In this document: positions 1 to 16,281 of the stretch, piece after piece | Layout of the letters: every line of letters starts with the position of its first letter | How positions within the stretch are numbered: position 1 is the stretch's first letter | Assembly: GCF_000024025.1 (NCBI RefSeq) | Contig: NC_013131.1 | Span: forward strand, 6,820,001-6,884,000 | Direction of reading: 5' to 3' | DNA: 64,000 nt | Source of the DNA: Catenulispora acidiphila DSM 44928 | Lineage (GTDB): Bacteria; Actinomycetota; Actinomycetes; Streptomycetales; Catenulisporaceae | Translations under genes and position numbers: made by a program | Notes under the pieces: model-generated | Seen by the model: the letters and a program-made list of their open reading frames with translations, nothing else | Databases searched by the model: none | What the model was told of the DNA's origin: nothing

Positions 1-306
1 GCCGCGGCGACCTACCTCGCGGACAACGTCCCGGTCCTGCCGATGGGCGGCTTCACCAGCGACGCCCCGGCGCCGACCGTGCAGGGACTCGCGCAGCTCG
101 TGCACACCGGCAAGCTGCGCTACGTCGTGGTGTCCGGCATGCGCATGGGCGGCCGGAGCGTCGCAGCGAAGGACCGCGACGCCTGGGTGACCAACCATTG
201 CCACTCGGTTCCGGGCCTGTCCTCCGACACCGGCAGCGGCGTTGGCACCGGCACCGGCACTGGTATTGGCACCGGCGCGGCGACCGGCGTATTCGATTGT
301 TCGTGA
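1..306 (+). CDS. C-terminal end of a membrane glycosyltransferase (GT39/ArnT-like), partial
   Basis: The reading frame is open from the first base, so the gene begins outside the window; only the last 101 residues are visible. The segment PMGGFTSDAPAPTVQ, followed by a stretch predicting VHTGKLRYVVV, resembles the periplasmic C-terminal part of actinobacterial PMT/ArnT-type glycosyltransferases, where a Gly-Gly-Phe-x-x-x-Asp-Pro segment precedes a short alpha/beta unit and a W-V motif (here AWVTNHC). Such enzymes move sugars from polyprenyl-phosphate carriers in the membrane. The tail carries a low-complexity Gly-Thr dipeptide run (TGTGTGIGTG). The family call rests on this short tail only and is moderate; the membrane segments are not in view. 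Confidence 0.55.
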   Translation, partial: AAATYLADNVPVLPMGGFTSDAPAPTVQGLAQLVHTGKLRYVVVSGMRMGGRSVAAKDRDAWVTNHCHSVPGLSSDTGSGVGTGTGTGIGTGAATGVFDCS

Positions 307-325
307 TCGCGGCCGGGGATAAGAT
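297..325 (+). promoter_or_regulatory. Candidate promoter for the T-box/aspS transcript
   Basis: TTGTTC (297-302) and TAAGAT (320-325) are separated by 17 bp, a good fit to a housekeeping sigma-70-type promoter. It overlaps the stop codon of the upstream gene and would start RNA about 10 nt before the first T-box helix. Assigned by inspection only. Confidence 0.45.
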
Positions 326-334
326 CCCTCCAAC

Positions 335-610
335 ACGTTGAAGGAGACGAGTAGCCTCGGATCCGCGCGGGTCCAGAGAGCCGTCGGCAGCTGGGAAGAC
401 GGTCCCGCGTCCCGGGGCGAAGACCCTCCTGAGTGCGGGGAGGCAATGCCCCGCCGGCTGGCTCCCGTCATCGGGCCGCCACGAGGTCGTGGCTGAGGCG
501 ATCGCCGACTCCGGCGGTGGCGGAGGCCGCGGCGAAGGTGCGGTGGTACCGCGATTCCCTTATCGCCCGCGCCCCCAAGGGATCACTTCGATGCCCTTGG
601 AGGGCTCAAA
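335..610 (+). promoter_or_regulatory. T-box riboswitch leader, apparent Asp (GAC) specifier
   Basis: T-boxes are leader RNAs that bind a specific tRNA and sense whether it is charged. Stem I closes with AGGAG (342-346) against CTCCT (426-430). The specifier internal loop has AGTA (350-353) on the 5' side and GAA (419-421) on the 3' side, directly followed by GAC (422-424), the Asp codon. Above it GCCTCGG (354-360) pairs with 412-418. The antisequestrator has the conserved GGTGGTACCGCG (542-553) with the tRNA-end-pairing TGGT at 544-547. Downstream, TTCCCTT (555-561) can pair with AAGGGA (577-582), and CCCTT...AGGG (594-604) can pair around the ribosome binding site GGAGG (599-603). There is no U-tract terminator, so control of translation is more likely. 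Specifier and downstream gene agree, which is strong internal support. Confidence 0.88.
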
Positions 611-1903
611 ATGATCCACCGCGTACTCGCCTCCGAGATGCCGGCGCACGTAGGTGAAACCGTCCAGGTCTGCGGCTGGCTGCACCGCCGCCGCGAACTC
701 AAGAACGTCACGTTCCTCATCCTGCGCGACCGCAGCGGCCTGACACAGGCCGTCCTGCCGGGCGCCGTCGCCGAGCAACTGCGCGACATCCCGGAGGAGA
801 CCGTGCTCTCCTTCGTCGGGACCGTAACCGCCAACGAGCAGGCGCCCGGCGGCGTGGAGGTCGTCGCGCCGGCCAGCGGCCCGCAGGTCGAGCTCCTGTC
901 CACCCCGGCCGAAACGCCGCCGCTGGACATCTACCGCCCAAGCGTGACCGCCTCGCTGCCGACCATCCTGGACGGCGCCCCGGTGGCCCTGCGCCATCCA
1001 CTCCTGAACGCCCCATTCCAGATCACGGCCGCCTCCATCGCCGGCTTCCGCACCGCACTGGACGCCCTAAACTTCACCGAGATCCACACCCCGAAGATCG
1101 TCGGCTCGGCCACCGAATCCGGCGCCAACGTCTTCGCCCTGGACTGGTTCGGACGCAAGGCATACCTGGCGCAATCCCCGCAGTTCTTCAAGCAGGCCAT
1201 GGTCGGCGTCTTCGAGCGCGTCTACGAGACCGGCCCAGTCTTCCGCGCCGAACCCTCCGACACCGCACGGCACCTGGCGCAGTACACAAGCCTGGACGCG
1301 GAACTCGGCTTCATCACCGACCACCGCGACGTGATGGCCGTGGTCCGCGAGGCCCTGGCCGGCATGGTCACCACAGTCGCCGAACGCGCACCGGCAGCCG
1401 TGGACCTCCTCGGAGTGAAGCTGCCGACCGTCCCAGACCAGATCCCCGAGATCCACTTCGCAGACGCCATGAAGATGCTCGGCGAAGACGAGCCGGACCT
1501 ATCCCCAGCCAACGAACGCGACCTGAGCCACTGGGCACTACGCGAATTCGGCAGCGAGTTCCTCTTCGTCACCGGCTACCCAATGACCAAGCGTCCCTTC
1601 TACACCCACGCACAACCCGACCGCCCAAACTACTCCAACAGCTTCGACCTAATCTTCCGCGGCCTAGAACTAATCACCGGCGGCCAACGCCTCCACCGCT
1701 ACGAGGACTACATCGCAGCCCTGACCGCCCGCGGAGAACCAACCAACGCCTACGAGGGATACCTCGCCAACTTCAAGCACGGCATGCCCCCACACGGCGG
1801 CTTCGCACTCGGCCTGGAGCGCTGGACCATGCGCCTGACCGAAGCGGACAACCTGCGCCGGACGGCCCTGTTCCCTCGGGACCTGCACCGCCTGACACCA
1901 TGA
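611..1903 (+). CDS. aspS: Aspartyl-tRNA synthetase, compact archaeal type (possibly Asp/Asn non-discriminating)
   Basis: This 430-residue class II synthetase charges tRNA with aspartate. An N-terminal OB-fold (about residues 15-100, with VQVCGWLHRRRELKNVTF) binds the anticodon; the catalytic core shows motif 2 around PVFRAEPSDTARHLAQYTSL and motif 3 near the C-terminus (GGFALGLERWTMRL then LFPRDLHRL). It lacks the roughly 150-residue GAD insertion of the normal bacterial enzyme (about 590 aa), so it belongs to the archaeal/eukaryotic-like group, several members of which also charge tRNA-Asn. Actinobacteria normally have the long form as housekeeping gene, so this is probably a second, inducible copy; that is inference. 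The ATG follows GGAGG by 7 nt, and the gene is preceded by a T-box with an Asp specifier. Confidence 0.9.
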   Translation: MIHRVLASEMPAHVGETVQVCGWLHRRRELKNVTFLILRDRSGLTQAVLPGAVAEQLRDIPEETVLSFVGTVTANEQAPGGVEVVAPASGPQVELLSTPAETPPLDIYRPSVTASLPTILDGAPVALRHPLLNAPFQITAASIAGFRTALDALNFTEIHTPKIVGSATESGANVFALDWFGRKAYLAQSPQFFKQAMVGVFERVYETGPVFRAEPSDTARHLAQYTSLDAELGFITDHRDVMAVVREALAGMVTTVAERAPAAVDLLGVKLPTVPDQIPEIHFADAMKMLGEDEPDLSPANERDLSHWALREFGSEFLFVTGYPMTKRPFYTHAQPDRPNYSNSFDLIFRGLELITGGQRLHRYEDYIAALTARGEPTNAYEGYLANFKHGMPPHGGFALGLERWTMRLTEADNLRRTALFPRDLHRLTP

Positions 1904-2026
1904 TCGTGCACTGATTCGGTGCGCGCACGGGCCTCTCGTCGTCGTCATGGCGGCGAGAGGCCCGGCCCGAACTCGGCGTGGCCAACGGATTGCTGGCATA
2001 CGCGATCGGCCCTCTTCATTCACCTA

Positions 2027-2306
2027 TTTCGCTCCTCCGGGCGCCGTTCGGCCCCCCGGGCCCTGCTCACTTCTCCAGGCTCCGCTCGCCTCTTCGCCTC
2101 TTTCGCTCCTCCGGGCGCCGTTCGGCCCCCCGGGCCTGCTCGCTTCTCCGGGCTCCGCTCGCCTCTTCGCCTCTTTCGCTCGTCCCAGCGCCGTTCGGCC
2201 CCCAGACCCTGCTCGCCTCTCCAGGCACTCGCTTCTTCGCCTCTTTCCCTCTTCCCGGCACCGTTCGGCCCCCGAGCCCTGCTCGCTTCTCCGGCGCCAG
2301 AGGTGA
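2027..2306 (+). repeat. Tandem repeat, four imperfect copies of a 70-74 bp unit
   Basis: Copies begin at 2027, 2101, 2174 and 2244, each opening with TTTCGCTC or TTTCCCTC, followed by GCGCCGTTCGGCCCCC and a pyrimidine-rich CTGCTCGCTTCTCC tail. The 74, 73 and 70 bp spacing shows small indels. It fills most of the 1904-2445 gap between aspS and pepP; the rest of that gap shows no convincing gene. Confidence 0.85.
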
Positions 2307-6460: not shown

Positions 6461-7380
6461 CAGACCTGCTGCCTCCGCTCACGGGACTTGTCCTCCAGTG
6501 GCAGGACGCGGAGGGTGTCGGCCTTGATGGCGTCGGCCTGCTCCGGCAGGAGTGGGACGCGGGGCGGGCGGCAGTCGCCGCCGTGTCGACCGGCCAGGTC
6601 CATGGAGAGCTTGATCGCCTGGACGAACTCGACGCGGGAGTCCCAGCGCAGGAGCGGGTGCAGCTCGCGGTACAGGGGTAGGGCTTCCTGCAGGTCCTGG
6701 GCGACAGCGGCCTGATAGAGGTCGACGCACGCGTGCGGGATGGCGTTCGGGTAGCCGGAGATCCAGCCGACGGCGCCGGCCAGGGCGAGTTCGAGCAGGA
6801 CGTCGTCGGCGCCGACCAACAGATCGAGCTCGGGCGCCAGTTCCTTGATGCGGTAGGCGCGGCGGGTGTCGCCGGAGAACTCCTTGACGGCGCGGATGTG
6901 GCCGGCCTCGTGGAGCTGCTGGAGGAGTTCGGGGAGCAGGTCGACCTTGGTGTCGATGGGGTTGTTGTACGCCACGATCGGGATGCCGACGTCGGCGACC
7001 GCCTTGTAGTGCGCCAGGACGGAGCGCTCGTCGGCACGGTAGGCGTTGGGCGGCAGCAGCATGACCGCTTCGGCACCGGCCTCCGCCGCCTGTTCGGCCC
7101 ACCGCCGCGACTCCATCGAGCCGTATGCCGCCACGCCGGCCAGCACCCGGTCCCCGCCGACGGTCTCGACCGCGGTGCGCACGACGGCGGCACGTTCGTG
7201 ATCGGTGAGTGTCTGGTACTCGCCGAGCGAGCCGTTGGGACACACGCCGTCGCAGCCGGCGTCGATGAGGCCGCGCAGGTTCTCGGCGTAGGCGTCGAGG
7301 TCCACGGACAGGTCGTCGCGGAAGGGCAGGGCGGTGGCGACGACGACGCCGTGCCAGGGCATGCGGGAGGACATGGTCAC
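6460..7380 (-). CDS. DapA-family aldolase/deaminase, probable pyrroline-4-hydroxy-2-carboxylate deaminase
   Basis: A 306-aa class I Schiff-base TIM-barrel protein of the dihydrodipicolinate synthase/N-acetylneuraminate lyase superfamily. The Schiff-base lysine is Lys166 (RAVKEFSGD), the partner tyrosine Tyr138 (VAYNNP), and the substrate-carboxylate motif reads NGSLGEYQTL near residue 50 where true DapA has GTTGE. In hydroxyproline operons a DapA paralogue converts pyrroline-4-hydroxy-2-carboxylate to alpha-ketoglutarate semialdehyde with loss of ammonia; I assign that role from context. The start overlaps the preceding oxidoreductase gene (stop at 7377) by 4 nt. No semialdehyde dehydrogenase is visible in the window, so the next step must be encoded elsewhere. 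Confidence 0.85.
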   Translation of the reverse strand: MTMSSRMPWHGVVVATALPFRDDLSVDLDAYAENLRGLIDAGCDGVCPNGSLGEYQTLTDHERAAVVRTAVETVGGDRVLAGVAAYGSMESRRWAEQAAEAGAEAVMLLPPNAYRADERSVLAHYKAVADVGIPIVAYNNPIDTKVDLLPELLQQLHEAGHIRAVKEFSGDTRRAYRIKELAPELDLLVGADDVLLELALAGAVGWISGYPNAIPHACVDLYQAAVAQDLQEALPLYRELHPLLRWDSRVEFVQAIKLSMDLAGRHGGDCRPPRVPLLPEQADAIKADTLRVLPLEDKSRERRQQV

Positions 7381-9266
7381 TTGTTCCTTCGGTCTTGGTC
7401 GGCGAGCACGCCGAGCGGGACGGGACGCGCCAGCGGACGCTTCGCGGCGGCAAGGAGGTCGGCCTCGGTGGGCGGATCGGCGTCAGCACCCTCGCCGCGG
7501 GCCAGGCATGCGACGGCGTAACCGCACACGCGCCCCTGGCACCAGCCCATGCCGGCGCGTGTGAGGAGCTTGACGGTCCGGGCGTCGCCGGCGCCGAGGT
7601 CGGCGACCGCCTCGGTGATGGCGGAGGCGGGCACCTCCTCGCAGCGGCAGACGACGGTGTCGGCGGCGAGGTGCTCGCGCCACGCTGCCGGGATGGGATG
7701 GCGCGCGCGGAGGAGGTCGGCGAGGGCGCGCTGGCGGGTGCGGCGACGGAGGAGGGTGGGGAGGTTCGGGGGTGTGGTGGCAGCTGGAGATTCGGCGGGG
7801 TCGCTGGCGGCTGGAACTAAGGTGCGGCGGGTGAGGCGGGCTCGGGCGGCGGTGATTTTGGAAGTGCTGGTGGCGGTAGGCGAGTTAGGGACCGGCGATG
7901 ATGCGGCATCGGCGCGAGCAGCAACGGGCTCGGAGTTGGTGGCGGCGGGCGAGGCAGGGCTCGGCGATGGTCCGGGATCGGTGCGGTGGGTGAGGCGGGC
8001 GCGGATGTTTTCGAGTGCGCGGGAGGCGGGGTTGGGTTCGGTGGGTGCGGGTTTTGGGATGGTGTCGTTGTTTGATCGGCGGGTGAGGCGGGCTCGGGCG
8101 GCGGTGATTGTGCGGGTGGTGCGCGGGGTGGTGGTCTTGTCGGCGGGGGGTGTTGGTGGCGGAAGGCTGGCCGATACGGGGCTTTGTGTCTCGGTGGTGC
8201 CTGCTGCTCTGCTTGCCATGCGGCGGGCGCGGGCTGTGGCTTGGGCGACGGCTAGGCCGGCGATTTCGCCTTCGAGGAGGGCTGTTTCTACTCCGGCTAC
8301 GCCGGCGGTTTCGCCTGCGGCGTAGAGGTTGGGGATGGTGGTGCGTTGGGTTGTGTTCACTCGGAGGGCTGTGGTGCCGTCGGTGAGGTGGGTGGGGGTG
8401 GCGCCTAGGGTGAGGGCTAGGTCGATTTGGGGGGCTAGGCCGTAGCCGATGGCTAGGGTGTCGCATTCGATGCGGTGGGGGTCGGTGCCGTCGGGGCGGG
8501 CCGTTATGACTGCTTCGAGGGTTTCGGTGCCTTGGGCTTCGATGATCATGCGGCCGGTGTGGACGGGGATGCGGGCCCGGGTCAGGTGGCGGGCGTAGTC
8601 GAGGCCTTCGGCGAGTTTGGTGGGGTTGGTCAGGAGGGGGAGGGGGTTTTTGGCGTAGCCACGGATGGTGTTGGCTTCGTAGAGGCCGAGGACTTGGGCG
8701 CCTGCGGTGGCCAGGCCTGCTGCTACGGGGAGCAGGAGTGGGCCGGTGCCTGCCACGACCACGCGGCGGCCGGGGAGGACCAGGTTGCCCTTGAGGAGGG
8801 CTTGGGCGCCGCCGGCGGTGAAGACGCCGGGGAGGTCCCAGCCGGGGAAGGGGACGACGCGTTCGTAGGCGCCGGTTGCGAGGATCACGTAGGGCGCCTC
8901 GATCGGGCCGCGGTCTGTCAGGACCCTGAATCCGGGCTCGATGGCCCAGACCTGGTGGCCGAACAGGACTTCGATGCCGGCGGCCGTCTCCACGCGCGTG
9001 AGCAGCTGCTCGAACTGCTGCCAGCCGTGGTAGAGCTTCGGCAGCCAGTCGGCGGTGAGGCCGGGCGCGGGGTGGCGGAAGTACTGGCCGCCGAGTTGGC
9101 GGCCGGCGTCGATGAGGGCGACGCGCAGTCCTTGTTCGGCGGCGGTCGCGGCTGCTGCCATGCCCGCCGGGCCGGCGCCGATGACGGCCAGGTCGAAGGC
9201 GTCCAGGTGCTCGGTGTCGCCGAAGACCTCAGAGGTGGCGGTGGGATCGAGGGCGCGCTCAGTCAT
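7377..9266 (-). CDS. FAD-dependent dehydrogenase alpha subunit (HcnB/OoxA-like) with 2Fe-2S (BFD) C-terminus and an expanded linker
   Basis: About 629 aa from the ATG at 9266, which overlaps the end of the upstream ferredoxin-like gene (ATGACTGA). The N-terminal two-dinucleotide-binding FAD domain starts with VIGAGPAGMA and runs to about residue 345 (NLYAAGETAGVAGVETALLEG). The C-terminal BFD-like domain has four cysteines (VVCRCEEV, WCQGRVCG). Relatives in hydrogen cyanide synthase, octopine/nopaline oxidase and D-hydroxyproline dehydrogenase are about 460-480 aa; here a Pro/Thr/Ala/Arg-rich linker of about 160 residues separates the domains and holds repeats of ITAARARLTRR. The cysteines survive, so the enzyme is probably functional. 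Expected role: subunit of a membrane-linked D-hydroxyproline or D-proline dehydrogenase. Confidence 0.85.
   Translation of the reverse strand: MTERALDPTATSEVFGDTEHLDAFDLAVIGAGPAGMAAAATAAEQGLRVALIDAGRQLGGQYFRHPAPGLTADWLPKLYHGWQQFEQLLTRVETAAGIEVLFGHQVWAIEPGFRVLTDRGPIEAPYVILATGAYERVVPFPGWDLPGVFTAGGAQALLKGNLVLPGRRVVVAGTGPLLLPVAAGLATAGAQVLGLYEANTIRGYAKNPLPLLTNPTKLAEGLDYARHLTRARIPVHTGRMIIEAQGTETLEAVITARPDGTDPHRIECDTLAIGYGLAPQIDLALTLGATPTHLTDGTTALRVNTTQRTTIPNLYAAGETAGVAGVETALLEGEIAGLAVAQATARARRMASRAAGTTETQSPVSASLPPPTPPADKTTTPRTTRTITAARARLTRRSNNDTIPKPAPTEPNPASRALENIRARLTHRTDPGPSPSPASPAATNSEPVAARADAASSPVPNSPTATSTSKITAARARLTRRTLVPAASDPAESPAATTPPNLPTLLRRRTRQRALADLLRARHPIPAAWREHLAADTVVCRCEEVPASAITEAVADLGAGDARTVKLLTRAGMGWCQGRVCGYAVACLARGEGADADPPTEADLLAAAKRPLARPVPLGVLADQDRRNK
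7745..8215 (-). repeat. Internal coding repeat in the HcnB-like linker
   Basis: The coding linker holds two copies of a 32-33 nt segment, ending at 7856 and 8108, identical over at least 30 nt and exactly 252 nt (84 codons) apart; both encode ITAARARLTRR. A diverged copy near 7988-8010 encodes IRARLTHRT, and the flanking native helix has a related ARARRM motif. The exact multiple of three keeps the frame open. Confidence 0.8.
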
Positions 9267-9546
9267 TGCCTTCACCGCCCCGCTCGCCGCCGCGTCCATC
9301 GCCTACCTGGGTCCGCACCACATCTCCCTCCGCGACGACCGCGAGGCACGCCCGCACGTTCGGCTCCCCGTTCACCGTCACCAGACAGTCGAAGCACACG
9401 CCGATCCCGCAGAACAGCCCGCGCGGCCGGCCGCTGAAGCGCGTCGTGCGCCATGACCGGATGCCCTCGGCCAGCAGTGCCGCGCCGACGGTCTGTCCGG
9501 GTTGGGCCGTCAGCGGGCGGCCGTCGAAGCTGAAATCCACGCTCAC
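9259..9546 (-). CDS. 2Fe-2S ferredoxin-like dehydrogenase subunit (HcnA/SoxD-like)
   Basis: A 95-aa plant-type [2Fe-2S] domain protein. The four cluster cysteines are Cys46, Cys51, Cys54 (LFCGIGVCFDC) and Cys67 (NVRAC), the arrangement found in small subunits of hydrogen cyanide synthase, opine oxidases and the hydroxyproline dehydrogenase complex. It passes electrons between the two flavoprotein subunits encoded on either side. The start overlaps the stop of the upstream DAO-family gene by 4 nt (ATGA) and its own end overlaps the next gene by 8 nt, so all three subunits are translationally coupled and presumably made in equal amounts. The last 15 residues are a Gly/Glu-rich tail. Confidence 0.9.
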   Translation of the reverse strand: MSVDFSFDGRPLTAQPGQTVGAALLAEGIRSWRTTRFSGRPRGLFCGIGVCFDCLVTVNGEPNVRACLAVVAEGDVVRTQVGDGRGGERGGEGND

Positions 9547-10739
9547 TGCGTACCGTCCCCGTGTTCGACAGCCGTGCCGAAGCGTGCCGGCGCGAATGGC
9601 TCCGCCGCTACCGGCGACCGTTGCCCGATCAGCATCGAAGCGATCAACTCCCCGGTTGCTGGCGCCAGGCCGATTCCGGCGCCCTCGTGCCCGCAGGCGT
9701 GGAAGAGCCCTGATACGTTGAGGTCTGGGCCGATTGCCGGCAGGTGATCGGGCAGGTAGGGCCGGAAACCGGTGTAGTAGCGCTGGACCTTCACGTCCGC
9801 CAGGAACGGGAACAACTCAGCGCCCTGAGCTGCCAGTCGACCCAGCGCGTCATACGACGGCCGCCGGTCCAGCCCGACACGCTCCCGGCTCGCACCGATC
9901 AGCACCGGTCCCGACGGCGTCCCCTCAACCACAGCAGAGGACTGCAACGCCGCATCCGAGCTCGAGACATCCGCGACGTAGGCCGCCGAATACACCTTGT
10001 GCCGCACCATCGCCGGAAGCGGCTCGGTCACCAACACGAACCCGCGTCGCGGCTGGACCGGCAGTGCCGACCCGGCGAAGGAAGCGATAGCTGACGCCCC
10101 GAACCCGGCGGCGTTCACCACGAACCGCGCCGGGATCTCTCCCGCCACCGTCCGCACCCCGCGCACCGCGCCGCTGCCGGACAGCACAAGCCCGGTTACC
10201 GCGCTCCCCAACCGCAGCCGCGCGCTCGAGGCCTTCAGCAACCGCGCCGTGGCCAGCGCCGGCATCACCTGCGCGTCCTGCGGATACCAGAATCCGCCGG
10301 CCAGTTCCGGGGCGATGTAGGGTTCGAATTCGGCTAATCGGTCCCCCGGTACTTCTTCGGCGACGACGCCCAGAGGTACCTGCGTGGCCGCAAAGCGTTG
10401 CAGCGCCTCGAAATCGGTCGCCGTGAACGCGACGACCAAGCCGCCCTTGGCCTCGAACTCGAAGCCCGCTCCGAACGCGCCGTCGTCCTCGGCGGCCAGC
10501 GAGCGCCACAGCTCCTGGGAGCGCAGCGCGAGGTCCAACTCCGGTCCCGGTTCCTTGTCCGAGACCAGCAGGTTCCCCTCCCCCGCCCCGGACGTGCCGC
10601 CGGCCACCGGGCCGCTGTCGACTACCGTCACCGACAGGCCGGCGCGCGCGGCGTAGAAGGCGCACGCCGCGCCGATCATCCCGGCCCCGATCACCACGAC
10701 GTCGGACGTCGGGCGGGACCCGCTGGCGGCTGCGCTCAC
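9543..10739 (-). CDS. FAD-dependent D-amino-acid-type oxidoreductase, beta subunit (HcnC/DadA-like)
   Basis: A 398-aa flavoprotein of the DAO family. The Rossmann motif VVVIGAGMIGAACA lies at residues 13-26, and the C-terminal FAD signature reads YTGFRPYLPDHLPAIGP followed by FHACGHEGAGIGLAPATGE. This subunit oxidises the amine, in this context probably D-hydroxyproline or D-proline to the corresponding pyrroline carboxylate. It is the first gene of the minus-strand operon that continues through the ferredoxin-like subunit, HcnB-like subunit, DapA-like deaminase, epimerase and GntR regulator. The operon promoter must lie in the 181-bp space shared with the divergent encapsulin gene. Sarcosine or glycine oxidase activity is the main alternative. 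Confidence 0.87.
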   Translation of the reverse strand: MSAAASGSRPTSDVVVIGAGMIGAACAFYAARAGLSVTVVDSGPVAGGTSGAGEGNLLVSDKEPGPELDLALRSQELWRSLAAEDDGAFGAGFEFEAKGGLVVAFTATDFEALQRFAATQVPLGVVAEEVPGDRLAEFEPYIAPELAGGFWYPQDAQVMPALATARLLKASSARLRLGSAVTGLVLSGSGAVRGVRTVAGEIPARFVVNAAGFGASAIASFAGSALPVQPRRGFVLVTEPLPAMVRHKVYSAAYVADVSSSDAALQSSAVVEGTPSGPVLIGASRERVGLDRRPSYDALGRLAAQGAELFPFLADVKVQRYYTGFRPYLPDHLPAIGPDLNVSGLFHACGHEGAGIGLAPATGELIASMLIGQRSPVAAEPFAPARFGTAVEHGDGTQ

Positions 10740-10840
10740 GCCAGTACTATGTCACATGCTCCGGCTAGCCGCCACCGGCTCGCACTGTCGCGACCACTCG
10801 TGAACCGTCCTCTGTTTGTCACCCATTGCGGTAATAGACC

Positions 10841-10858
10841 GAGTCCCACATCGGACTC
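10841..10858. promoter_or_regulatory. Inverted repeat upstream of the encapsulin gene
   Basis: GAGTCC-CACATC-GGACTC is a perfect 6-bp inverted repeat with a 6-bp spacer in the intergenic region between the hydroxyproline operon and the encapsulin operon, about 63 bp before the encapsulin start. It could be an operator for either side; no regulator gene points to it. Confidence 0.35.
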
Positions 10859-10920
10859 ACGATGAAGGAGCGAGCGAGAAGCATCAGTGGTTCATCAGTC
10901 GTTATATAGAGGGGGCAACG

Positions 10921-12372
10921 ATGACGGTCGATCAGAGCGCGGCGGCACCGGAGACCACTACCGAGGGCGATCAGCTCAGCCTGGACACCGCGGCGGCGCG
11001 GAACCTGGCCACCACCACCAAGACGCCGCCGCAGATGCAGGGCATCACCTCCCGCTGGCTGCTGCGCGTGCTGCCGTGGATCGAGGCCTCCGGCGGCGCC
11101 TACCGGGTCAACCGCCGCCTGAGCCACGCCGTCGGGCGCGGCCGGGTGGCGTTCAGCCAGGCCGGGGACGACGACGTGCGCGTGCTGGCGCCGACCCTGA
11201 CCGAGCTGCCGCCGCTGCGCGACTTCGCCGACGAGGCGTTGCTGGCCGAGCTGGCCTCGCGCTTTTCCGTGCGCGAGCTCCGGGCCGGGCAGACGCTGAC
11301 CGAGGCCGGGACGCCGGTGGACACCCTGTGGCTGATCGCCCACGGCAAGGTCGACCTGACCGGCCAGGGCAAGTACGGCGACGACGCCGTGCACGGCCAC
11401 CTCGCCGACGGCGACCACCTGGGCGACGAGGTCTTCCAGACCACCGCGGGCGGCGGCGCGGCCGTCAACGGCCACGCCCCGCGCTGGCAGACCACGGCGC
11501 TGGCCGCGACCCCGGTCATCGCGCTGGCGGTTCCGGCGGCCGACGTCAGGGCCCTGATCGACCGGTCGGAGGCGCTGCGCGAGCACCTGGCCGCGCACCG
11601 CAGCACAACGGCCAAGGCACAGAACGCGCACGGCGAGGCCGAGATCGAATTGGCCGCCGGGCACGAGGGCGAGACCGAGCTGCCCGGCACGTTCGCCGAC
11701 TACGAGCTCAACCCGCGCGAGTACGAGCTGTCGGTGGCGCAGACCGTCCTGCGGATCCACACCCGCGTCGCAGACCTCTACAACAAGCCGATGAGCCAGC
11801 TGGACCAGCAGCTGCGGCTGACCGTCGAGGCGGTGCGCGAGCGGCAGGAGGACGAGCTGGTCAACAACCGCAGCTTCGGGCTGCTGCACAACGCCGACTT
11901 CGAGCAGCGCGTGCACACCCACTCCGGACCGCCGACGCCGGACGACCTGGACGAGCTGCTCTCGCTGCGCCGCGACACCAACTATCTGCTCGCGCACCCG
12001 AAGGCGATCGCCGCCTTCGGCCGGGAGTGCACCAAGCGCGGGATCTACCCGGGGACGATGGATCTGCTGGGGACGCAGGTGCCGTCGTGGCGGGGTGTTC
12101 CGCTGCTGCCGGTCCCGAAGATCCCGGTGCTGGACGGGCACACCACCTCGATCCTGGCGCTGCGGGTCGGCGAGGCCGAGCAGGGCGTGGTCGGACTGCA
12201 CCAGACCGGGCTGCCGGACGAGTACCAGCCGGGGCTGTCGGTGCGGTTCATGGGCGTCGATGAGAAGGCCATCACCTCTTATCTGGTGAGCGCCTACTAC
12301 TCGGCGGCGGTGCTGGTGCCGGACGCGCTCGGCGTGCTGGAGAACGTCGAGATCGCGCGGCCTCGTGGCTGA
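10921..12372 (+). CDS. Family 2B encapsulin shell protein with inserted cyclic-nucleotide-binding domain
   Basis: This 483-aa protein matches family 2B encapsulins (EshA-like, formerly major membrane protein I-like): an HK97-type phage-fold shell protein that assembles into a hollow protein compartment. An N-terminal arm ([35 protein letters not shown]) leads into a cNMP-binding domain at about residues 98-225 ([28 protein letters not shown]; phosphate-cassette region LGDEVF and RWQTTALA), then the shell core (residues about 255-483) with [21 protein letters not shown] and the C-terminal [14 protein letters not shown]. The start at 10921 has a strong GAGGGGG site 6 nt upstream. The next gene overlaps it by 8 nt and encodes a prenyl synthase, a known cargo class for this family. 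Confidence 0.92.
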
Positions 12373-13507
12373 GCCGTTGGCGGCGGGGACGGCGTGGGCG
12401 ACGGGCGAGGCGGGTGAGGCAGACTCTGCGGGAGCGGCTGACGCCGGGACCGGGGCGCCAGCTGACATAGCGTCGGGATCGCCATTGGCAGCGCCATTGC
12501 CCAAAGGTCTTGCCGAAGCAGCGTTGCACCGCACTCGTGACGCGGTCGAACCGGTCCTGCGCGCCGCCATCGACACCCTTCCGGGCCGATTACGCACGAT
12601 TGCCGCGTACCACTTCGGCTGGGAGGACGCCGAGGGCGCAGCGGTCGACGGCATCGGCGGCAAGTTGTTGCGGCCGGGTCTGGTCCTGGCCGCCGCGGCG
12701 GCGGTTGGGGGCGAGAAGGTCGCCGACTCCCCGGTGCTGGCTGCCGCGGCGGCCGTCGAGCTGGCGCACAACTTCACGCTGCTGCACGACGACGTCATAG
12801 ACCGCGACCAGACCCGGCGCCACCGCCCGACCGCGTGGACGGTGTTCGGCGCCGAGAACGCGATCCTGGCCGGGGACGCCATGCTGGCGCTCGCGCTGCG
12901 GCTGGTCGGGGGCGAGGCGGCGAGCCGGCTGGCGGAGTGCGTCATCGAGATCTGCGACGGTCAGTACGAGGACTGCGCCTTCGAGCTGCGCGACGACGTC
13001 ACGCTGGACGAGTGCTTGGCGATGGCCGGCAAGAAGACGGGGGCGTTGTTGGGCTGCGCGTGCGCGCTCGGCGGGTTGGCGGTGCGCGCCGATCCGCTGA
13101 CCGTGGCGGCGCTGGACCTGTTCGGGCGCGAACTCGGGATGGCCTTCCAGCTGACCGACGACCTGCTCGGCATCTGGGGCGATCCGGCGGTCACCGGCAA
13201 GCCGGTCGGGGCGGATCTCAGTGCACGAAAGAAGTCGCTGCCGGTGGTCGCCGCGCTGTCGGCACGCTCGGCGGCGGCGGGGGAACTGGCGCGGTTGTAT
13301 GCGCTGGGGCGCGACTTCACCGAGCACGAGGTGCGGCGGGCGACCGACGCCGTGGAACGTGCCGGGGGCAGAGCATGGGCCGCGACGGAGGCGACGGCCC
13401 GCATCGCCAAGGCGCACGCGCATCTGCGGCGCGCGCCGAGTATCGAACAGACAGCGGTGCACGACCTGCATGCGATCGCCGAGCTGATCACCCGGCGCAG
13501 CAAGTAA
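12365..13507 (+). CDS. Polyprenyl diphosphate synthase, probable encapsulin cargo
   Basis: A 380-aa trans-isoprenyl diphosphate synthase that condenses isopentenyl diphosphate onto allylic primers. The first Asp-rich motif is [10 protein letters not shown] (Asp142, 143 and 146), the second [12 protein letters not shown] (Asp265, 266). The first about 50 residues are Ala/Gly/Pro-rich and disordered (for example [20 protein letters not shown]), an extension absent from ordinary synthases. Disordered N-terminal targeting regions are the hallmark of cargo of family 2 encapsulins. The GTG start overlaps the encapsulin stop by 8 nt, so shell and enzyme are coupled. Product chain length cannot be read reliably here. 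No terpene cyclase lies in the window. Cargo status is inference from extension and position. Confidence 0.88.
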
Positions 13508-13508
13508 T

Positions 13509-13901
13509 TCAGAGCCCGCTCAGAGCCCTGTCCGCCACCGAGGAACAGCGCCACCGCCGCCCGGCCGGGCCGCACGCGCACCGCAGCAGAAGCTGCACAT
13601 CGCAGCGCCGCATCACCACACCATCAACGCATCTCAGCACCACAGCCAGCACACAGAATCGCAGCGCGCAGAACCGTGGCCGGCACACAGAACCAGCGCA
13701 CCTCAAGCACCACAACACCAATGCACCGCGGAACCACAGCCAGCACGCAGGGCCACTGCATTCAGAAACACAGCCAGCAGACAGAACAGCCGCACACAAA
13801 ACCGCGGCCGGCACACCGAACCAGCAGCACCGCAGCAGCGCAGCAGCCCACCGCACCGCAGCACCGCCGCACCACGACAGCACCACCAACGGGAGAACGT
13901 C
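13509..13901 (+). repeat. T-poor, CA-rich degenerate repeat region
   Basis: The 394-bp gap after the prenyl synthase is strikingly poor in T on the + strand and is built from variants of GCC(A/G)GCACACAGAACCAGC, seen near 13640, 13678, 13738, 13780 and 13810, separated by CAGCACCAC-like words. It starts with an 11-bp duplication TCAGAGCCCGC/TCAGAGCCCTG (13509-13530). No convincing gene; GGGAG at 13890-13894 belongs to the next gene. Confidence 0.6.
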
Positions 13902-14660
13902 ATGACCGCCAAGGACTACGGCATCATCGTCGCCGTCCTCATCCTGACCTTCATCACCCTGCGCCTGTTCGAGCGCTTCATTCCGCATCATCGGCGCGAG
14001 CCGCACAATGATGTCGCCGGGTTCATCTTCGCCACGGTCTCTGTGGTGTTCGCGGTGCCGTTGGCGTTCGTGGTGGTGGCGTTGTGGACGAACAATGACA
14101 CCGCGCATCAGACCACGTTCAAGGAGGCTAACGAGCTCGCGGGTATCTACTGGATCTCGCGTCAGTTGCCGGAGCCGCTGGGTCCGCAGTTGGAGCACGA
14201 GACGCTGGACTACGCGCACACGGTCATCGATGACGAGTGGCCGTTGCTGGCCGATCATCAGACGAGCCCGAAGGCCACGGAGCTGGTGTACCAGATGCGC
14301 GACAGTGTCTTTGCCTTCAAACCGGCCGACATCTCGCAGCAGACTCTCTACGATCACGCGCTGACCCATGTCGAGTCGCTGGCTGAGGAGCGCAGACTGC
14401 GGTTGAACCAGACCGAGGAGTCGTTGCCGCCGCTGCTGTGGGCGATCCTCATCGGCAGCGCGTTGGTGACCATTGCCTTCACGTTCTTGTTCGGCCTGTC
14501 CAGTTCCTTCGCGCACACCGTGATGGTGATGACGTTGGCCGCGCTGGTCGTGGTGTCGTTGGTGGTCGTCAGGGAGATGAGTTACCCGTATTCGGGGACG
14601 ATGAAGGTCCATCCGACGGCGTTCGAGGTGTTCCTGTCACGGCTGCCGGCGCCTCGCTGA
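13902..14660 (+). CDS. DUF4239 (bestrophin-like) membrane protein
   Basis: A 252-aa protein with four predicted membrane helices in two hairpins: residues about 8-25 and 42-62 near the N-terminus, then about 178-200 and 205-223 near the C-terminus, separated by a soluble helical stretch. The layout and the segments HHRREPHNDVAGFIFATVS and PYSGTMKVHPTAF match the DUF4239 family, whose C-terminal YxG motif is conserved and which is distantly related to bestrophin channels. No biochemical function is established. The ATG follows GGGAGAACGTC closely. It sits alone between a repeat region and a bidirectional terminator. Confidence 0.82.
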   Translation: MTAKDYGIIVAVLILTFITLRLFERFIPHHRREPHNDVAGFIFATVSVVFAVPLAFVVVALWTNNDTAHQTTFKEANELAGIYWISRQLPEPLGPQLEHETLDYAHTVIDDEWPLLADHQTSPKATELVYQMRDSVFAFKPADISQQTLYDHALTHVESLAEERRLRLNQTEESLPPLLWAILIGSALVTIAFTFLFGLSSSFAHTVMVMTLAALVVVSLVVVREMSYPYSGTMKVHPTAFEVFLSRLPAPR

Positions 14661-14683
14661 GCAGCCGATCCCGCGGAAAAGCA

Positions 14684-14709
14684 GCGCGCCCCGCGAGAGC
14701 GGGGCGCGC
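14684..14709. terminator. Bidirectional hairpin terminator
   Basis: GCGCGCCCCGC (14684-14694) pairs perfectly with GCGGGGCGCGC (14699-14709) across a GAGA loop, between the convergent DUF4239 and permease genes. CTTTC follows on the + side. Confidence 0.85.
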
Positions 14710-14715
14710 CAGGCT

Positions 14716-14745
14716 TTCAGATCAGATCAGATCAGCTCAGATCAC
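14716..14745. repeat. ATCAG pentamer run over the permease stop codon
   Basis: TTCAG, three ATCAG, CTCAG and ATCAC follow one another without gaps; the permease stop (complement TCA, 14737-14739) lies inside the CTCAG unit. Confidence 0.75.
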
Positions 14746-16281
14746 GTCCAGGTCCGCGAACTGCTCGGCCTCGACCGTGCCGGCCGGCGGGGCGTAGCTG
14801 GCCCGGCCGCGTGCCAGCCACCAGACCCCGGACAGGATCAGGGCGGCCGCGAGGGCGATCGGTGCGTAGTTGAACGTGAGTGCGGTGACCGGCGAGGCCT
14901 GCGGCAGGCAGAAGAGCACGACCTCGATCACCACCCACACCGAGGCGGTGTAGCCGACCAGCGGTCCCCACTTGCCCAGGTTCCAGGCGCCCTTCTTGAA
15001 GTTCTTGCCCTGTCGGGCGCGCAGGAAGCCGGGGATGACGTAGGCCGGTGCCAGGCCGATCGAGGCGATGGCGGTCACCGCGCCGTAGGCCTGGATGGTC
15101 CACAGGGAGGGCAGGGCCAGGATGAAGGCCACGACGACCACGAGCCACATGGCGTTGGTCGGGACCGCCGAGCGGTTGACCTTGCGCCAGGTCGGGGAGC
15201 CGGGCAGGGCGCCGTCGCGGGAGAAGGCGAAGACCATGCGCGCCGCCGAGCCGATGGCGGCCAGGCCGCAGCACAGCTGGGCCACGACGATGATCAGCGT
15301 CAGGACTTCGGCCCAGTGCTGGCCCAGGGCGTCGATCATGATGATCGAGGGCGCCGTCACCGCGCCGCCGTAGCCGGAGCCGGCGGCCTCGGTGGCGTAC
15401 TGGCCGGAGTTGCCCTGGATGGCGAACAGGAAGGCGACCAGCAGCACCAGGCCGGCGATGCCGGAGACCCAGATGGACCGCACGATGCCCTTGGGCGCCA
15501 GCGTCGATGCCTGGGAGGTCTCCTCGGACATGTGGGCCGAGGCGTCGTAGCCGGTCAGGGTGTAGCCGGTGAGCAGCAGGCCGATGGCGCTGACGTAGAT
15601 CGCGCTCTTGAAGCCGGTGGCGTTCACGTAGTGGGTGAACACGAAGCTGGCGCTCTGGTGGTGCGCCGGGACCAGGAACAGCACCGCCACGATGAACGCC
15701 ACGCCCAGCAGGTGCCACCAGACGCTGACCCGGTTGAACAGGTCCAGCACCCGCACGCCGAAGGTGTTCAGCACGCCGTGCAGCAGTAGGACGCCGGCGA
15801 ACACCGCGATCAGCCCGTACTTGTCCGGGGTCCAGCCGAACGTCATGCCGGTGAAGGCGCCGATGAACTCCGCGGCGCCGTAGTCGATGCCGGCTATGAC
15901 GCCGAACAGGCCCAGCATGTTCAGCCAGCCGGTGATCCAGCCCCAGCCCTTGCCGCCGAGGCGGTGGGCCATGAAGAACAGCGCGCCGGAGGTCGGGTAG
16001 ACGCTGGTCACCTCGGCCAGGCTCAGTCCGATGAGCAGCACCGCGATGGTGACGCCGATCCAGCCCCAGACCATGACGGCCGGGCCGCCGGTGGACATGC
16101 CGAAGCCGAACAGCGTCATACAGCCGGACAGGATGGAGATGATGGAGAAGCTGATGGCGAAGTTGCCGAAGCCGGACATCTTGCGGGACAGCACCGGTTC
16201 GTAGCCGATCGCGCGCAGTTGCGCGGCATCGGCGTCGGTGTCTGCAAAGGCGGAGTTCTCTGAGCTTTCAGTCATCGACAT
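14737..16281 (-). CDS. APC-superfamily amino-acid permease (GABA/choline-type)
   Basis: A 514-aa integral membrane transporter with about 12 hydrophobic helices. The N-terminal cytoplasmic segment AIGYEPVLSRKMSGFGNFAISFSIISIL and the Gly-rich first membrane segment (SILSGCMTLFGFGMSTGGPAVMVWGW) are typical of the amino acid/choline/GABA group of the APC superfamily. It probably imports an amino acid or amine by proton symport; the substrate cannot be fixed from sequence. The start is placed at the ATG at 16281 because the upstream in-frame stretch contains short direct repeats and has no membrane or family character; ATG 16275 is a close alternative. Three TGCGA-based repeats lie upstream. Confidence 0.88.
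   Translation of the reverse strand: MSMTESSENSAFADTDADAAQLRAIGYEPVLSRKMSGFGNFAISFSIISILSGCMTLFGFGMSTGGPAVMVWGWIGVTIAVLLIGLSLAEVTSVYPTSGALFFMAHRLGGKGWGWITGWLNMLGLFGVIAGIDYGAAEFIGAFTGMTFGWTPDKYGLIAVFAGVLLLHGVLNTFGVRVLDLFNRVSVWWHLLGVAFIVAVLFLVPAHHQSASFVFTHYVNATGFKSAIYVSAIGLLLTGYTLTGYDASAHMSEETSQASTLAPKGIVRSIWVSGIAGLVLLVAFLFAIQGNSGQYATEAAGSGYGGAVTAPSIIMIDALGQHWAEVLTLIIVVAQLCCGLAAIGSAARMVFAFSRDGALPGSPTWRKVNRSAVPTNAMWLVVVVAFILALPSLWTIQAYGAVTAIASIGLAPAYVIPGFLRARQGKNFKKGAWNLGKWGPLVGYTASVWVVIEVVLFCLPQASPVTALTFNYAPIALAAALILSGVWWLARGRASYAPPAGTVEAEQFADLDVI

What the first reader, a model, noticed from the sequence alone, without database searches (positions are those of the whole stretch)
308..610. Asp-specific T-box controlling an archaeal-type AspRS in an actinobacterium
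Seen: closed Stem I, AGTA/GAA specifier loop, GAC at 422-424, and the T-box core GGTGGTACCGCG directly ahead of an AspRS gene, so codon and gene agree. Known: T-boxes are common in Firmicutes; in actinobacteria they are mostly ileS translational switches. An Asp T-box on a non-housekeeping AspRS would mean that this copy is induced only when tRNA-Asp (or tRNA-Asn, if the enzyme is non-discriminating) is under-charged, for example by an aspartyl-AMP-like antibiotic.
Basis: partly seen in the sequence, partly recalled or inferred. Interest (0 to 1): 0.78.

Follow-up and report, generated by a model that had tools for sequence, protein, structure and literature searches.

The report
tRNA-Asp switch on spare aspartyl-tRNA synthetase
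In front of a spare aspartyl-tRNA synthetase gene of a soil actinomycete lies an RNA switch that looks built to sense uncharged tRNA-Asp, and related switches sit before the same spare enzyme, and before spare seryl-tRNA synthetases, in other actinomycetes, which points to an inducible backup for when the main enzyme fails.

Summary
Window 329-573 (+) matches the Rfam T-box model (64.8 bits, E 6.8e-14, though under the 93-bit gathering score), with AGUA/GAA specifier loop, GAC at 422-424 and the UGGUACC core, ending 37 nt before a 430-aa archaeal-type AspRS. The genome also has a bacterial AspRS. GAC is invariant in 39 of 39 leaders (window plus 38 of 39 relatives); Stem I covaries at 15 of 24 pairs. 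No terminator was found, but a strong hairpin covers the Shine-Dalgarno (z -4.0) and overlaps the antisequestrator, so translational control is likeliest. Of 394 sampled actinomycetes 21 have this AspRS (59% identity or more); 21 of 21 have a T-box core upstream and also the bacterial AspRS. Related leaders precede a second AspRS lineage and, with specifier TCC, duplicate SerRS: 67 of 67 GAC leaders stand before AspRS sequence, 17 of 20 TCC leaders before a SerRS start, the other three being remnants. Stem I seems to have shrunk to a small hairpin several times. A known mechanism in an apparently undescribed niche; induction and any antibiotic link are untested.

The parts
297..325 (+). likely vegetative promoter: TTGTTC (297-302), 17-nt spacer, TAAGAT (320-325)
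   Evidence: same spaced pattern 8-28 nt before the GGAGAC of Stem I in 28 of 39 leaders, 0.4% of letter-shuffled regions; the stricter consensus scan found no promoter
329..573 (+). T-box leader (RF00230, model 1-219)
   Evidence: 64.8 bits, E 6.8e-14, below gathering score 93
334..435 (+). long Stem I with AGUA (350-353), AGAGAG bulge (375-380), distal loop region and GAA (419-421)
   Evidence: RNAalifold on 37 of 39 leaders: 15 of 24 pairs with changes on both sides
422..424 (+). specifier GAC (Asp)
   Evidence: invariant in 39 of 39 leaders; alignment to RF00230
435..477 (+). Stem II and Stem IIA/B region (CCGTCATCGGG)
   Evidence: alignment to RF00230; boundaries approximate, naming recalled
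537..573 (+). antisequestrator: A1 537-543/567-573, bulge UGGUACC 544-550 (would pair the tRNA 3' end), A2 551-555/562-566
   Evidence: RF00230 alignment; A1 pairs standard in 57-60 of 60 leaders at every position, with exchanges at 3 of 7
571..605 (+). sequestrator hairpin covering the Shine-Dalgarno; shares 571-573 with the A1 3' arm
   Evidence: -23.9 kcal/mol, z -3.99, 0 of 200 shuffles as stable; one search gives -37.3 for the state with this hairpin and -34.7 with A1 forced
599..604 (+). Shine-Dalgarno GGAGGG
   Evidence: read from sequence; 83% paired with the A1 arm segment in the ensemble
611..1903 (+). aspS2: archaeal-type AspRS, 430 aa, second copy
   Evidence: bacterial AspRS elsewhere in the genome at C1:2683160-2684887, 705 bits

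Best explanation
The leader is a tRNA-Asp-sensing T-box that keeps a backup AspRS silent. Shown by comparison: long Stem I with GAC specifier, T-box core, antisequestrator A1/A2, and in the window a rival hairpin over the Shine-Dalgarno. Inferred: when tRNA-Asp is charged, hairpin 571-605 hides GGAGGG (599-604). When uncharged tRNA-Asp (anticodon GUC) pairs with GAC and its NCCA end pairs with UGGU, A1/A2 (537-573) is stabilised, takes bases 571-573 back and frees the ribosome site, so AspRS2 is made. The T-box goes with a second AspRS (two lineages) or, with specifier TCC, a SerRS of a separate type, as an emergency enzyme used when the housekeeping synthetase cannot keep its tRNA charged. 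An inhibitor of the housekeeping enzyme is the likeliest reason to keep such a gene; plain Asp starvation is the alternative.
For: Rfam match E 6.8e-14. GAC in 39 of 39 leaders. Stem I covariation at 15 of 24 pairs and exchanges in A1. Specifier follows the gene: 67 of 67 GAC leaders stand before AspRS sequence (64 with the start of the gene in place) and 17 of 20 TCC leaders before a SerRS start (NCBIfam names SerRS for 3 of 3 tested), although the search model was built from Asp leaders only. UGGN agrees with the discriminator base: N is C in 49 and U in 11 of 60 leaders, tRNA-Asp of this genome has G73, tRNA-Ile A73. No terminator-like site; Shine-Dalgarno hairpin z -3.99. Second copy in 21 of 21 genomes; archaeal-type AspRS genes of another family have no T-box core in 8 of 8 loci looked at, of 13 found.
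Against: No expression or binding data. Catenulispora leaders carry UGGU, which meets G73 only by a G-U wobble. Score is below Rfam's gathering score, and the window's Stem I alone folds no better than shuffles (z -0.69). In the window the free fold disrupts A1, but in 29 of 39 leaders, near relatives included, the free fold of the 3' segment already has A1 formed beside a separate hairpin, so the switch is not evident there. Shine-Dalgarno hiding is not uniform: 3 of 17 lineage groups have it at least half free, 6 of 17 have z above -1, and only 7 of 17 have it mainly paired to the A1 arm. Two relatives with full flanks lack a T-box core although their genomes also have the bacterial AspRS (L185, L193). 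Five draft genomes with aspS2 show no bacterial AspRS. No neighbour gene is shared by more than 9 of 39 loci, so nothing ties aspS2 to antibiotic clusters. That the TCC-linked SerRS is a second copy was not tested; it is assumed because SerRS is essential and the T-box gene is found in a minority of species.
Confidence: 0.8

Rival explanations
1. The leader acts at transcription, by an unusual G+C-rich terminator without U-tract or by Rho, rather than at translation.
For: The hairpin before the gene is very stable; in 29 of 39 leaders A1 and a downstream hairpin can coexist. Long Stem I is typical of transcriptional T-boxes (TBDB paper PMC7778990, passages read).
Against: No terminator-like site in 240-660. 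The Shine-Dalgarno is on average more than half paired in 14 of 17 lineage groups, more often than not. A few translational T-boxes with long Stem I are on record (PMC7583486, passage).
Confidence: 0.17
2. The element mainly serves tRNA-dependent asparagine synthesis: it responds to uncharged tRNA-Asn and supplies Asp-tRNA-Asn to GatCAB.
For: Enzyme has non-discriminating-type His25 and a Pro where T. kodakarensis-type AspRS has Trp26 and Lys (the meaning of these residues is recalled). GatB is present, and the AspRS query found no AsnRS-like gene, only the bacterial AspRS and a weak 507-aa ORF. tRNA-Asn also has G73.
Against: Specifier is GAC in 39 of 39, never AAC; tRNA-Asn would need a G-U at the first position. 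The same GAC leader controls an AspRS lineage (35 of 67 GAC leaders) with Lys, Asn or Arg and no Pro at that site in the 34 of 35 seen. If no AsnRS exists, the housekeeping AspRS must already be able to make Asp-tRNA-Asn.
Confidence: 0.08
3. The backup enzyme answers ordinary Asp or growth-state starvation (as argued for thrZ and tyrZ of Bacillus, recalled), with no antibiotic involved.
For: Gene is free-standing, without widely shared neighbours; T-boxes generally read starvation.
Against: Asp is a central metabolite made in one step (recalled); only about 5% of sampled species keep the gene (21 of 394), and the sister class is Ser, the target of albomycin, whose producers carry a second SerRS (review PMC9437257, passages read).
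Confidence: 0.35

Closest known systems
Translational T-boxes of actinobacterial ileS (Seliverstov 2005, PMC1262725, passages; Sherwood 2015, not held)
   Same: T-box core, antisequestrator against a hairpin that hides the Shine-Dalgarno, actinobacteria; this genome has an IleRS T-box too
   Different: Asp (and Ser) specifier, duplicate rather than housekeeping synthetase, mostly long Stem I with AGAGAG region; translational T-boxes are described as mostly intermediate or ultrashort, a few long (PMC7583486 passages)
Clostridium acetobutylicum T-boxes on aspS and on tRNA-dependent amidation (Saad 2012, 2013; seen only as references)
   Same: T-box on an extra AspRS; one of three aspS genes of C. 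acetobutylicum is T-box controlled (PMC2494555 passage)
   Different: here the specifier is Asp (the Clostridium switch is tied to asparagine by the titles), the gene stands alone, and output is probably translational
T-box on class I LysRS lysK of Bacillus cereus (PMC2916919, title and start of abstract only)
   Same: T-box on a second, unlike synthetase of the same specificity
   Different: Firmicute; different amino acid
Inducible resistant duplicate synthetases (TrpRS/indolmycin, SerRS/albomycin, IleRS/mupirocin; review PMC9437257, passages)
   Same: duplicate, diverged synthetase that covers for an inhibited one
   Different: the review does not mention T-boxes (0 occurrences); no inhibitor is known here

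Membership tests
T-box riboswitch (RF00230) | significant covariance-model match over the whole model | tested here: met
   E 6.8e-14, model 1-219, but 64.8 bits against a gathering score of 93; no T-box match in the 14 genomes of the family reaches it
T-box riboswitch (RF00230) | Stem I with specifier loop (AGUA/GAA) and codon matching the downstream gene | tested here: met
T-box riboswitch (RF00230) | UGGN bulge in an antiterminator/antisequestrator, N pairing with the discriminator base | tested here: met
   UGGC 49, UGGU 11 of 60 leaders; tRNA-Asp G73; in the window itself only a G-U wobble
T-box riboswitch (RF00230) | binds uncharged tRNA and switches expression | not testable with these tools
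   needs binding or reporter assay
Translational (class II) T-box | alternative hairpin hides the Shine-Dalgarno and excludes the antisequestrator | tested here: inconclusive
   clear in the window: hairpin 571-605, z -3.99, overlap 571-573; in 29 of 39 leaders the free fold keeps A1 beside another hairpin, and hiding is uneven
Translational (class II) T-box | no intrinsic terminator before the gene | tested here: met
   0 sites in window 240-660
Non-discriminating archaeal-type AspRS (AspRS2) | archaeal-type AspRS sequence family | tested here: met
   NF003483 529.7 bits over cut-off 353; TIGR00458 342.4, under its cut-off 368.4; 1n9w E 4.9e-113
Non-discriminating archaeal-type AspRS (AspRS2) | His/Pro in place of Trp26/Lys of discriminating T. 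kodakarensis AspRS (recalled rule) | tested here: met
   alignments
Non-discriminating archaeal-type AspRS (AspRS2) | charges tRNA-Asn as well as tRNA-Asp | not testable with these tools
   needs aminoacylation assay

The most novel reading that the evidence does not exclude
Actinomycetes carry a dedicated emergency system: one T-box class with exchangeable specifier (GAC or TCC) that switches on a diverged duplicate AspRS or SerRS when the housekeeping enzyme is poisoned. Its spread would imply natural antibiotics of the aminoacyl-adenylate kind aimed at AspRS (as albomycin is at SerRS). One genome has both T-box genes in one island with three NUDIX proteins (one with a weak ASCH match) and a phosphotransferase-like gene. 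Under one gene, this T-box has repeatedly lost its upper Stem I.
Probability: 0.4. Interest if true: 0.78.

Novelty: new variant of a known kind. Interest (0 to 1): 0.62.

Why it matters
It extends the actinobacterial T-boxes described in the papers I could read (Ile, His) to Asp and Ser, ties them to duplicate synthetases, and gives a ready-made biosensor class: if they work as read, the leaders should light up for inhibitors of AspRS or SerRS and could help to find such natural products. Within one orthologous gene it offers long and ultrashort Stem I forms side by side, a natural series for the question of how translational T-boxes recognise tRNA without the distal elbow contact.

Tried and rejected
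Rfam at gathering score missed the element; only the E-value search showed it. A tRNA pattern of my own for tRNA-Asp/Asn found nothing; RF00005 then gave the tRNAs. Conserved neighbours as a clue to function: the largest neighbour cluster spans 9 of 39 loci and most clusters stay within a genus. My first reading of downstream genes by longest frame mis-framed many G+C-rich genes and was replaced by tblastn, whose hit lengths I checked: this lowered the TCC count from 18 to 17 of 20, since L129 keeps only the last 42 residues of SerRS. A pseudoknot between the A2 loop UCCCUU and AAGGGA (577-582), seen by eye, would free the ribosome site; the paired letters hardly vary among the 39 leaders, so covariation cannot test it, and I leave it as an idea. 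My automatic search for ultrashort hairpins missed L164 and picked other hairpins in L159; those two are by eye only. As a rough control, the same search also found a GAC hairpin in 3 of the 13 long-Stem-I leaders it scored in family f27 (L181, L183, L190), so a single hairpin means little; the weight lies in the repeated UGAC(A/G) loop and its position. The lineage groups were set by hand. L040 and L043 were dropped as near-duplicates from the alignment. In the tree script L037 got its type label from the wrong query; the tree places it with the window's lineage.

Not in print: searches gave no paper that I found to describe an Asp or Ser T-box in actinobacteria. I read the listings of all of these and passages of ten papers; of the 19 papers listed I looked into three (PMC12096830, PMC12452182, PMC7927825). 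Sherwood 2015 and Saad 2012 are not held. One paper says broadly that T-boxes of Actinobacteria and Firmicutes control various synthetases (PMC9413887), and the TBDB database, which scanned Actinobacteria with a class II model, could not be queried, so these leaders may already be listed somewhere.

Full report
What is there. The window lies in a single-contig genome of 10,467,782 bases; by recall that is the length of the Catenulispora acidiphila chromosome, and the nearest named relatives are Catenulispora. At 329-573 on the + strand the Rfam T-box model aligns from end to end with 64.8 bits, E 6.8e-14, E 3.3e-13 over the whole genome. This is below the curated gathering score of 93 bits, which is why a default scan is silent. 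The one other T-box match in the genome, 52.4 bits, stands before a protein that I recognise by eye as IleRS. The bacterial AspRS at C1:2683160 has no T-box match at E up to 10.

Anatomy. AGTA 350-353, AGAGAG 375-380, GAA 419-421, specifier GAC 422-424, core GGTGGTACCGCG 542-553, Shine-Dalgarno GGAGGG 599-604, ATG 611. A promoter-like pair TTGTTC-17-TAAGAT at 297-325 would start the RNA about 331-333 (inference); the same spaced pattern lies before Stem I in 28 of 39 leaders and in 0.4% of shuffled regions, although a stricter consensus scan found no promoter. One search found 39 relatives of the protein; 38 have the leader, the exception being a Spirochaete at 40% identity. In the window plus these 38, GAC is invariant (39 of 39) and the base after UGG is C in 29 and T in 10. 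RNAalifold on 37 of the 39 leaders gives 24 Stem I pairs, 15 with changes on both sides that keep the pair. The window's Stem I alone is no more stable than shuffles (z -0.69); the evidence is comparative.

The gene. The 430-aa ORF matches NF003483 'aspartate--tRNA(Asn) ligase' at 529.7 bits (cut-off 353) and TIGR00458 at 342.4, under its cut-off of 368.4. Its best solved relative is the non-discriminating archaeal-type AspRS2 of entry 1n9w. His25 and a Pro stand where the T. kodakarensis-type enzyme has Trp26 and a Lys (alignments; that these positions mark tRNA-Asn acceptance is recalled). The genome also has a bacterial AspRS (705 bits) and GatB. A search with the AspRS protein turned up no AsnRS, only the bacterial AspRS and a weak 507-aa ORF.

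Output. No terminator-like site lies in 240-660. Bases 571-605 form a hairpin that takes in the Shine-Dalgarno, -23.9 kcal/mol against -13.3 for shuffles, z -3.99, 0 of 200 as stable. It shares 571-573 with the 3' arm of helix A1 of the antisequestrator, and the two states lie close in energy (-37.3 against -34.7 with A1 forced). A1 pairs hold in 57 to 60 of 60 leaders at each position, with exchanges at three of seven. Over 60 leaders in 17 hand-made lineage groups the Shine-Dalgarno is on average more than half paired in 14 groups, the segment is more stable than shuffles (z below -1) in 11, and the Shine-Dalgarno is paired mainly with the A1 arm segment in 7. Against this, the free fold of the 3' segment has A1 already formed, beside a separate hairpin over the start region, in 29 of 39 leaders; the window is one of the 10 in which it is not. 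So direct exclusion between A1 and the Shine-Dalgarno hairpin is clear in the window and some clades; in the others the switch is not explained.

How widespread. A model of Stem I (R1) was run on 394 sampled genomes of the class: 44 have a match at E 1e-4, 46 matches in all. I read the 30 matches for which loci were given: 14 precede AspRS; 2 carry TCC, one before SerRS and one (L129) before only the last 42 residues of a SerRS; 14 are weaker, 10 of which I recognise by eye as IleRS and 4 not resolved. The AspRS protein was found in 35 of the same 394 genomes: 21 at 59-100% identity, one at 38%, and 13 of one family at 35-39%. All 21 have a T-box core upstream; 14 have the long Stem I with GAAGAC and 7 do not. 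All 21 also have the bacterial AspRS over its cut-off. Eight of the 13 low-identity loci were looked at and none has the core; in the one of these 13 genomes that I tested (G217) no bacterial AspRS reaches the cut-off, so there the archaeal-type enzyme seems to be the only one, and it has no T-box.

A Ser class and a second AspRS lineage. In 394 sampled genomes of the family of G195 (Streptomycetaceae, judging by the named loci that fall beside them in the tree), 66 have a match to R1 at E 1e-6, 79 matches in all. I fetched these and took together loci L118-L133 and L203-L282: 96 loci, in 8 of which my motif did not match (L233, L239, L254, L255, L265, L278, L279, L280; six of these show GAC or TCC by eye, two were not resolved, and all eight are left out of the counts). 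The rest hold 87 distinct leaders: 67 GAC and 20 TCC. By tblastn 67 of 67 GAC leaders stand before AspRS sequence, 32 of the window's type and 35 of a second type; in 64 of the 67 the start of the gene is in place, the other three being partial or interrupted (L126, L229, L248). At the discriminating site the second type has Lys in 27, Asn in 4 and Arg in 3 of 35, one unseen; the window's type has Pro in 30 of 32. Of the 20 TCC leaders 17 stand before a SerRS with its start, one (L129) before a SerRS stump, and two (L271, L273) before other sequence. NCBIfam names serine--tRNA ligase for 3 of 3 tested. R1 contained no Ser leader, so the match of codon and gene is independent of the model. I did not test whether these genomes have another SerRS. 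A tree of 87 AspRS rows, thinned from 144, puts the two AspRS types in separate clades (61 rows, support 100/98; 19 rows, 96/93), the second beside the T-box-free AspRS of the 35-39% family (rooted at the midpoint, long branches warned of). The same T-box class thus serves two AspRS lineages and SerRS.

Shrinking Stem I. In a sample of 149 genomes of family f27, 30 have the AspRS. Of these 14 have the long Stem I, 12 have instead a small hairpin with GAC in its loop, such as GAGG(CCUGACACC)CCUC, with GGGG/CCCC, GGAG/CUCC and GGGA/UCCC stems as variants, 1 has the core but no clear Stem I (L202), and 3 show no core: L178, where only 237 bases lie upstream, and L185 and L193. The same hairpin search also fired in 3 of the 13 long leaders it scored, so the ultrashort call rests on the shared loop and place, not on one hairpin. 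25 of 30 genomes also have the bacterial AspRS; the five without are drafts 77-93% complete. On the AspRS tree 58 rows labelled long or ultrashort need at least 4 changes, 3 without L164. Two of the labels, L159 and L164, rest on reading by eye.

Mechanism and use. The best reading is a T-box that releases translation of a backup AspRS when tRNA-Asp is uncharged. tRNA-Asp of this genome has G73, which fits UGGC of most leaders fully and UGGU of Catenulispora by wobble; tRNA-Ile has A73. tRNA-Asn is an unlikely ligand since AAC does not occur in the 39 leaders. What would make a cell need a second AspRS is not shown. The sister class on SerRS, the target of albomycin whose producers have a second SerRS (review PMC9437257, passages), and an island in one genome where T-box SerRS and T-box AspRS flank a phosphotransferase-like gene (by eye) near three NUDIX proteins, point to poisoned synthetases; the lack of shared neighbours elsewhere gives no support. 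I put poisoning somewhat ahead of starvation.

Known or new. A 2005 survey of actinobacteria reports ileS T-boxes and no others (PMC1262725, passages); a 2008 survey counts 32 T-boxes in 12 of 19 genomes then filed under Actinobacteria, and eighteen in Symbiobacterium (PMC2494555, passages); his operon T-boxes are known in Corynebacterium, and the same paper says in general that T-boxes of Actinobacteria and Firmicutes control various synthetases (PMC9413887, passages). A T-box on one of three aspS genes is known in Clostridium acetobutylicum (PMC2494555, passage). My searches of the open library found no Asp or Ser T-box in actinobacteria (passages), but key subscription papers are not held and TBDB itself could not be queried. 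I file it as a T-box, a new variant by specificity, gene and lineage.

Noticed in passing
L240 (G845:C1:8343000-8358000), 6747-14977: T-box(TCC)-SerRS (9513-10796 -) and T-box(GAC)-AspRS (6747-8066 -) lie about 1.4 kb apart with a phosphotransferase-like ORF (8481-9464 +, by eye) between them and three NUDIX proteins nearby, one with a weak ASCH match.
   Followed up: partly
L271 from 210 +, L273 from 210 -, L129 from 1510 +: TCC T-box remnants: in L271 and L273 no SerRS follows (L273 keeps a core and a stub that looks like the SerRS start), in L129 Stem I runs into the last 42 residues of a SerRS.
   Followed up: partly
L126 (G020:C895) and L167: In G020 the aspS2 gene seems interrupted: T-box and N-terminal part near C895:59-500, remainder from 3720, about 3 kb apart.
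   Followed up: no
G000:C1:6617990-6618231 (L002, L047): Second T-box of the genome, before a protein read by eye as IleRS.
   Followed up: partly
window 10961-11468 (-): Rfam match to Sernc350 (Saccharopolyspora sRNA 350), 123.8 bits.
   Followed up: no
window 19519-19610 and 22131-22222: ARAGORN tRNA-Met and tRNA-Ala calls of 92 bases; the genome-wide Rfam tRNA search lists none in the window, so they are probably false.
   Followed up: partly
window 2020-2300: About three imperfect copies, by eye, of a C+T-rich unit (GCTCCTCCGGGCGCCGTTCGGCCCCCCGGGCC-like) between aspS2 and the next gene.
   Followed up: no
L185 (G426) and L193 (G429): aspS2 relatives (59%) with full upstream flanks but no T-box core, in genomes that also have the bacterial AspRS.
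   Followed up: partly
G413, G428, G431, G436, G439 (family f27): Draft genomes with aspS2 but no bacterial AspRS found; in all five the leader has the long Stem I (L183, L195, L190, L180, L188). Either incomplete drafts or cases where the T-box gene is the only AspRS.
   Followed up: no
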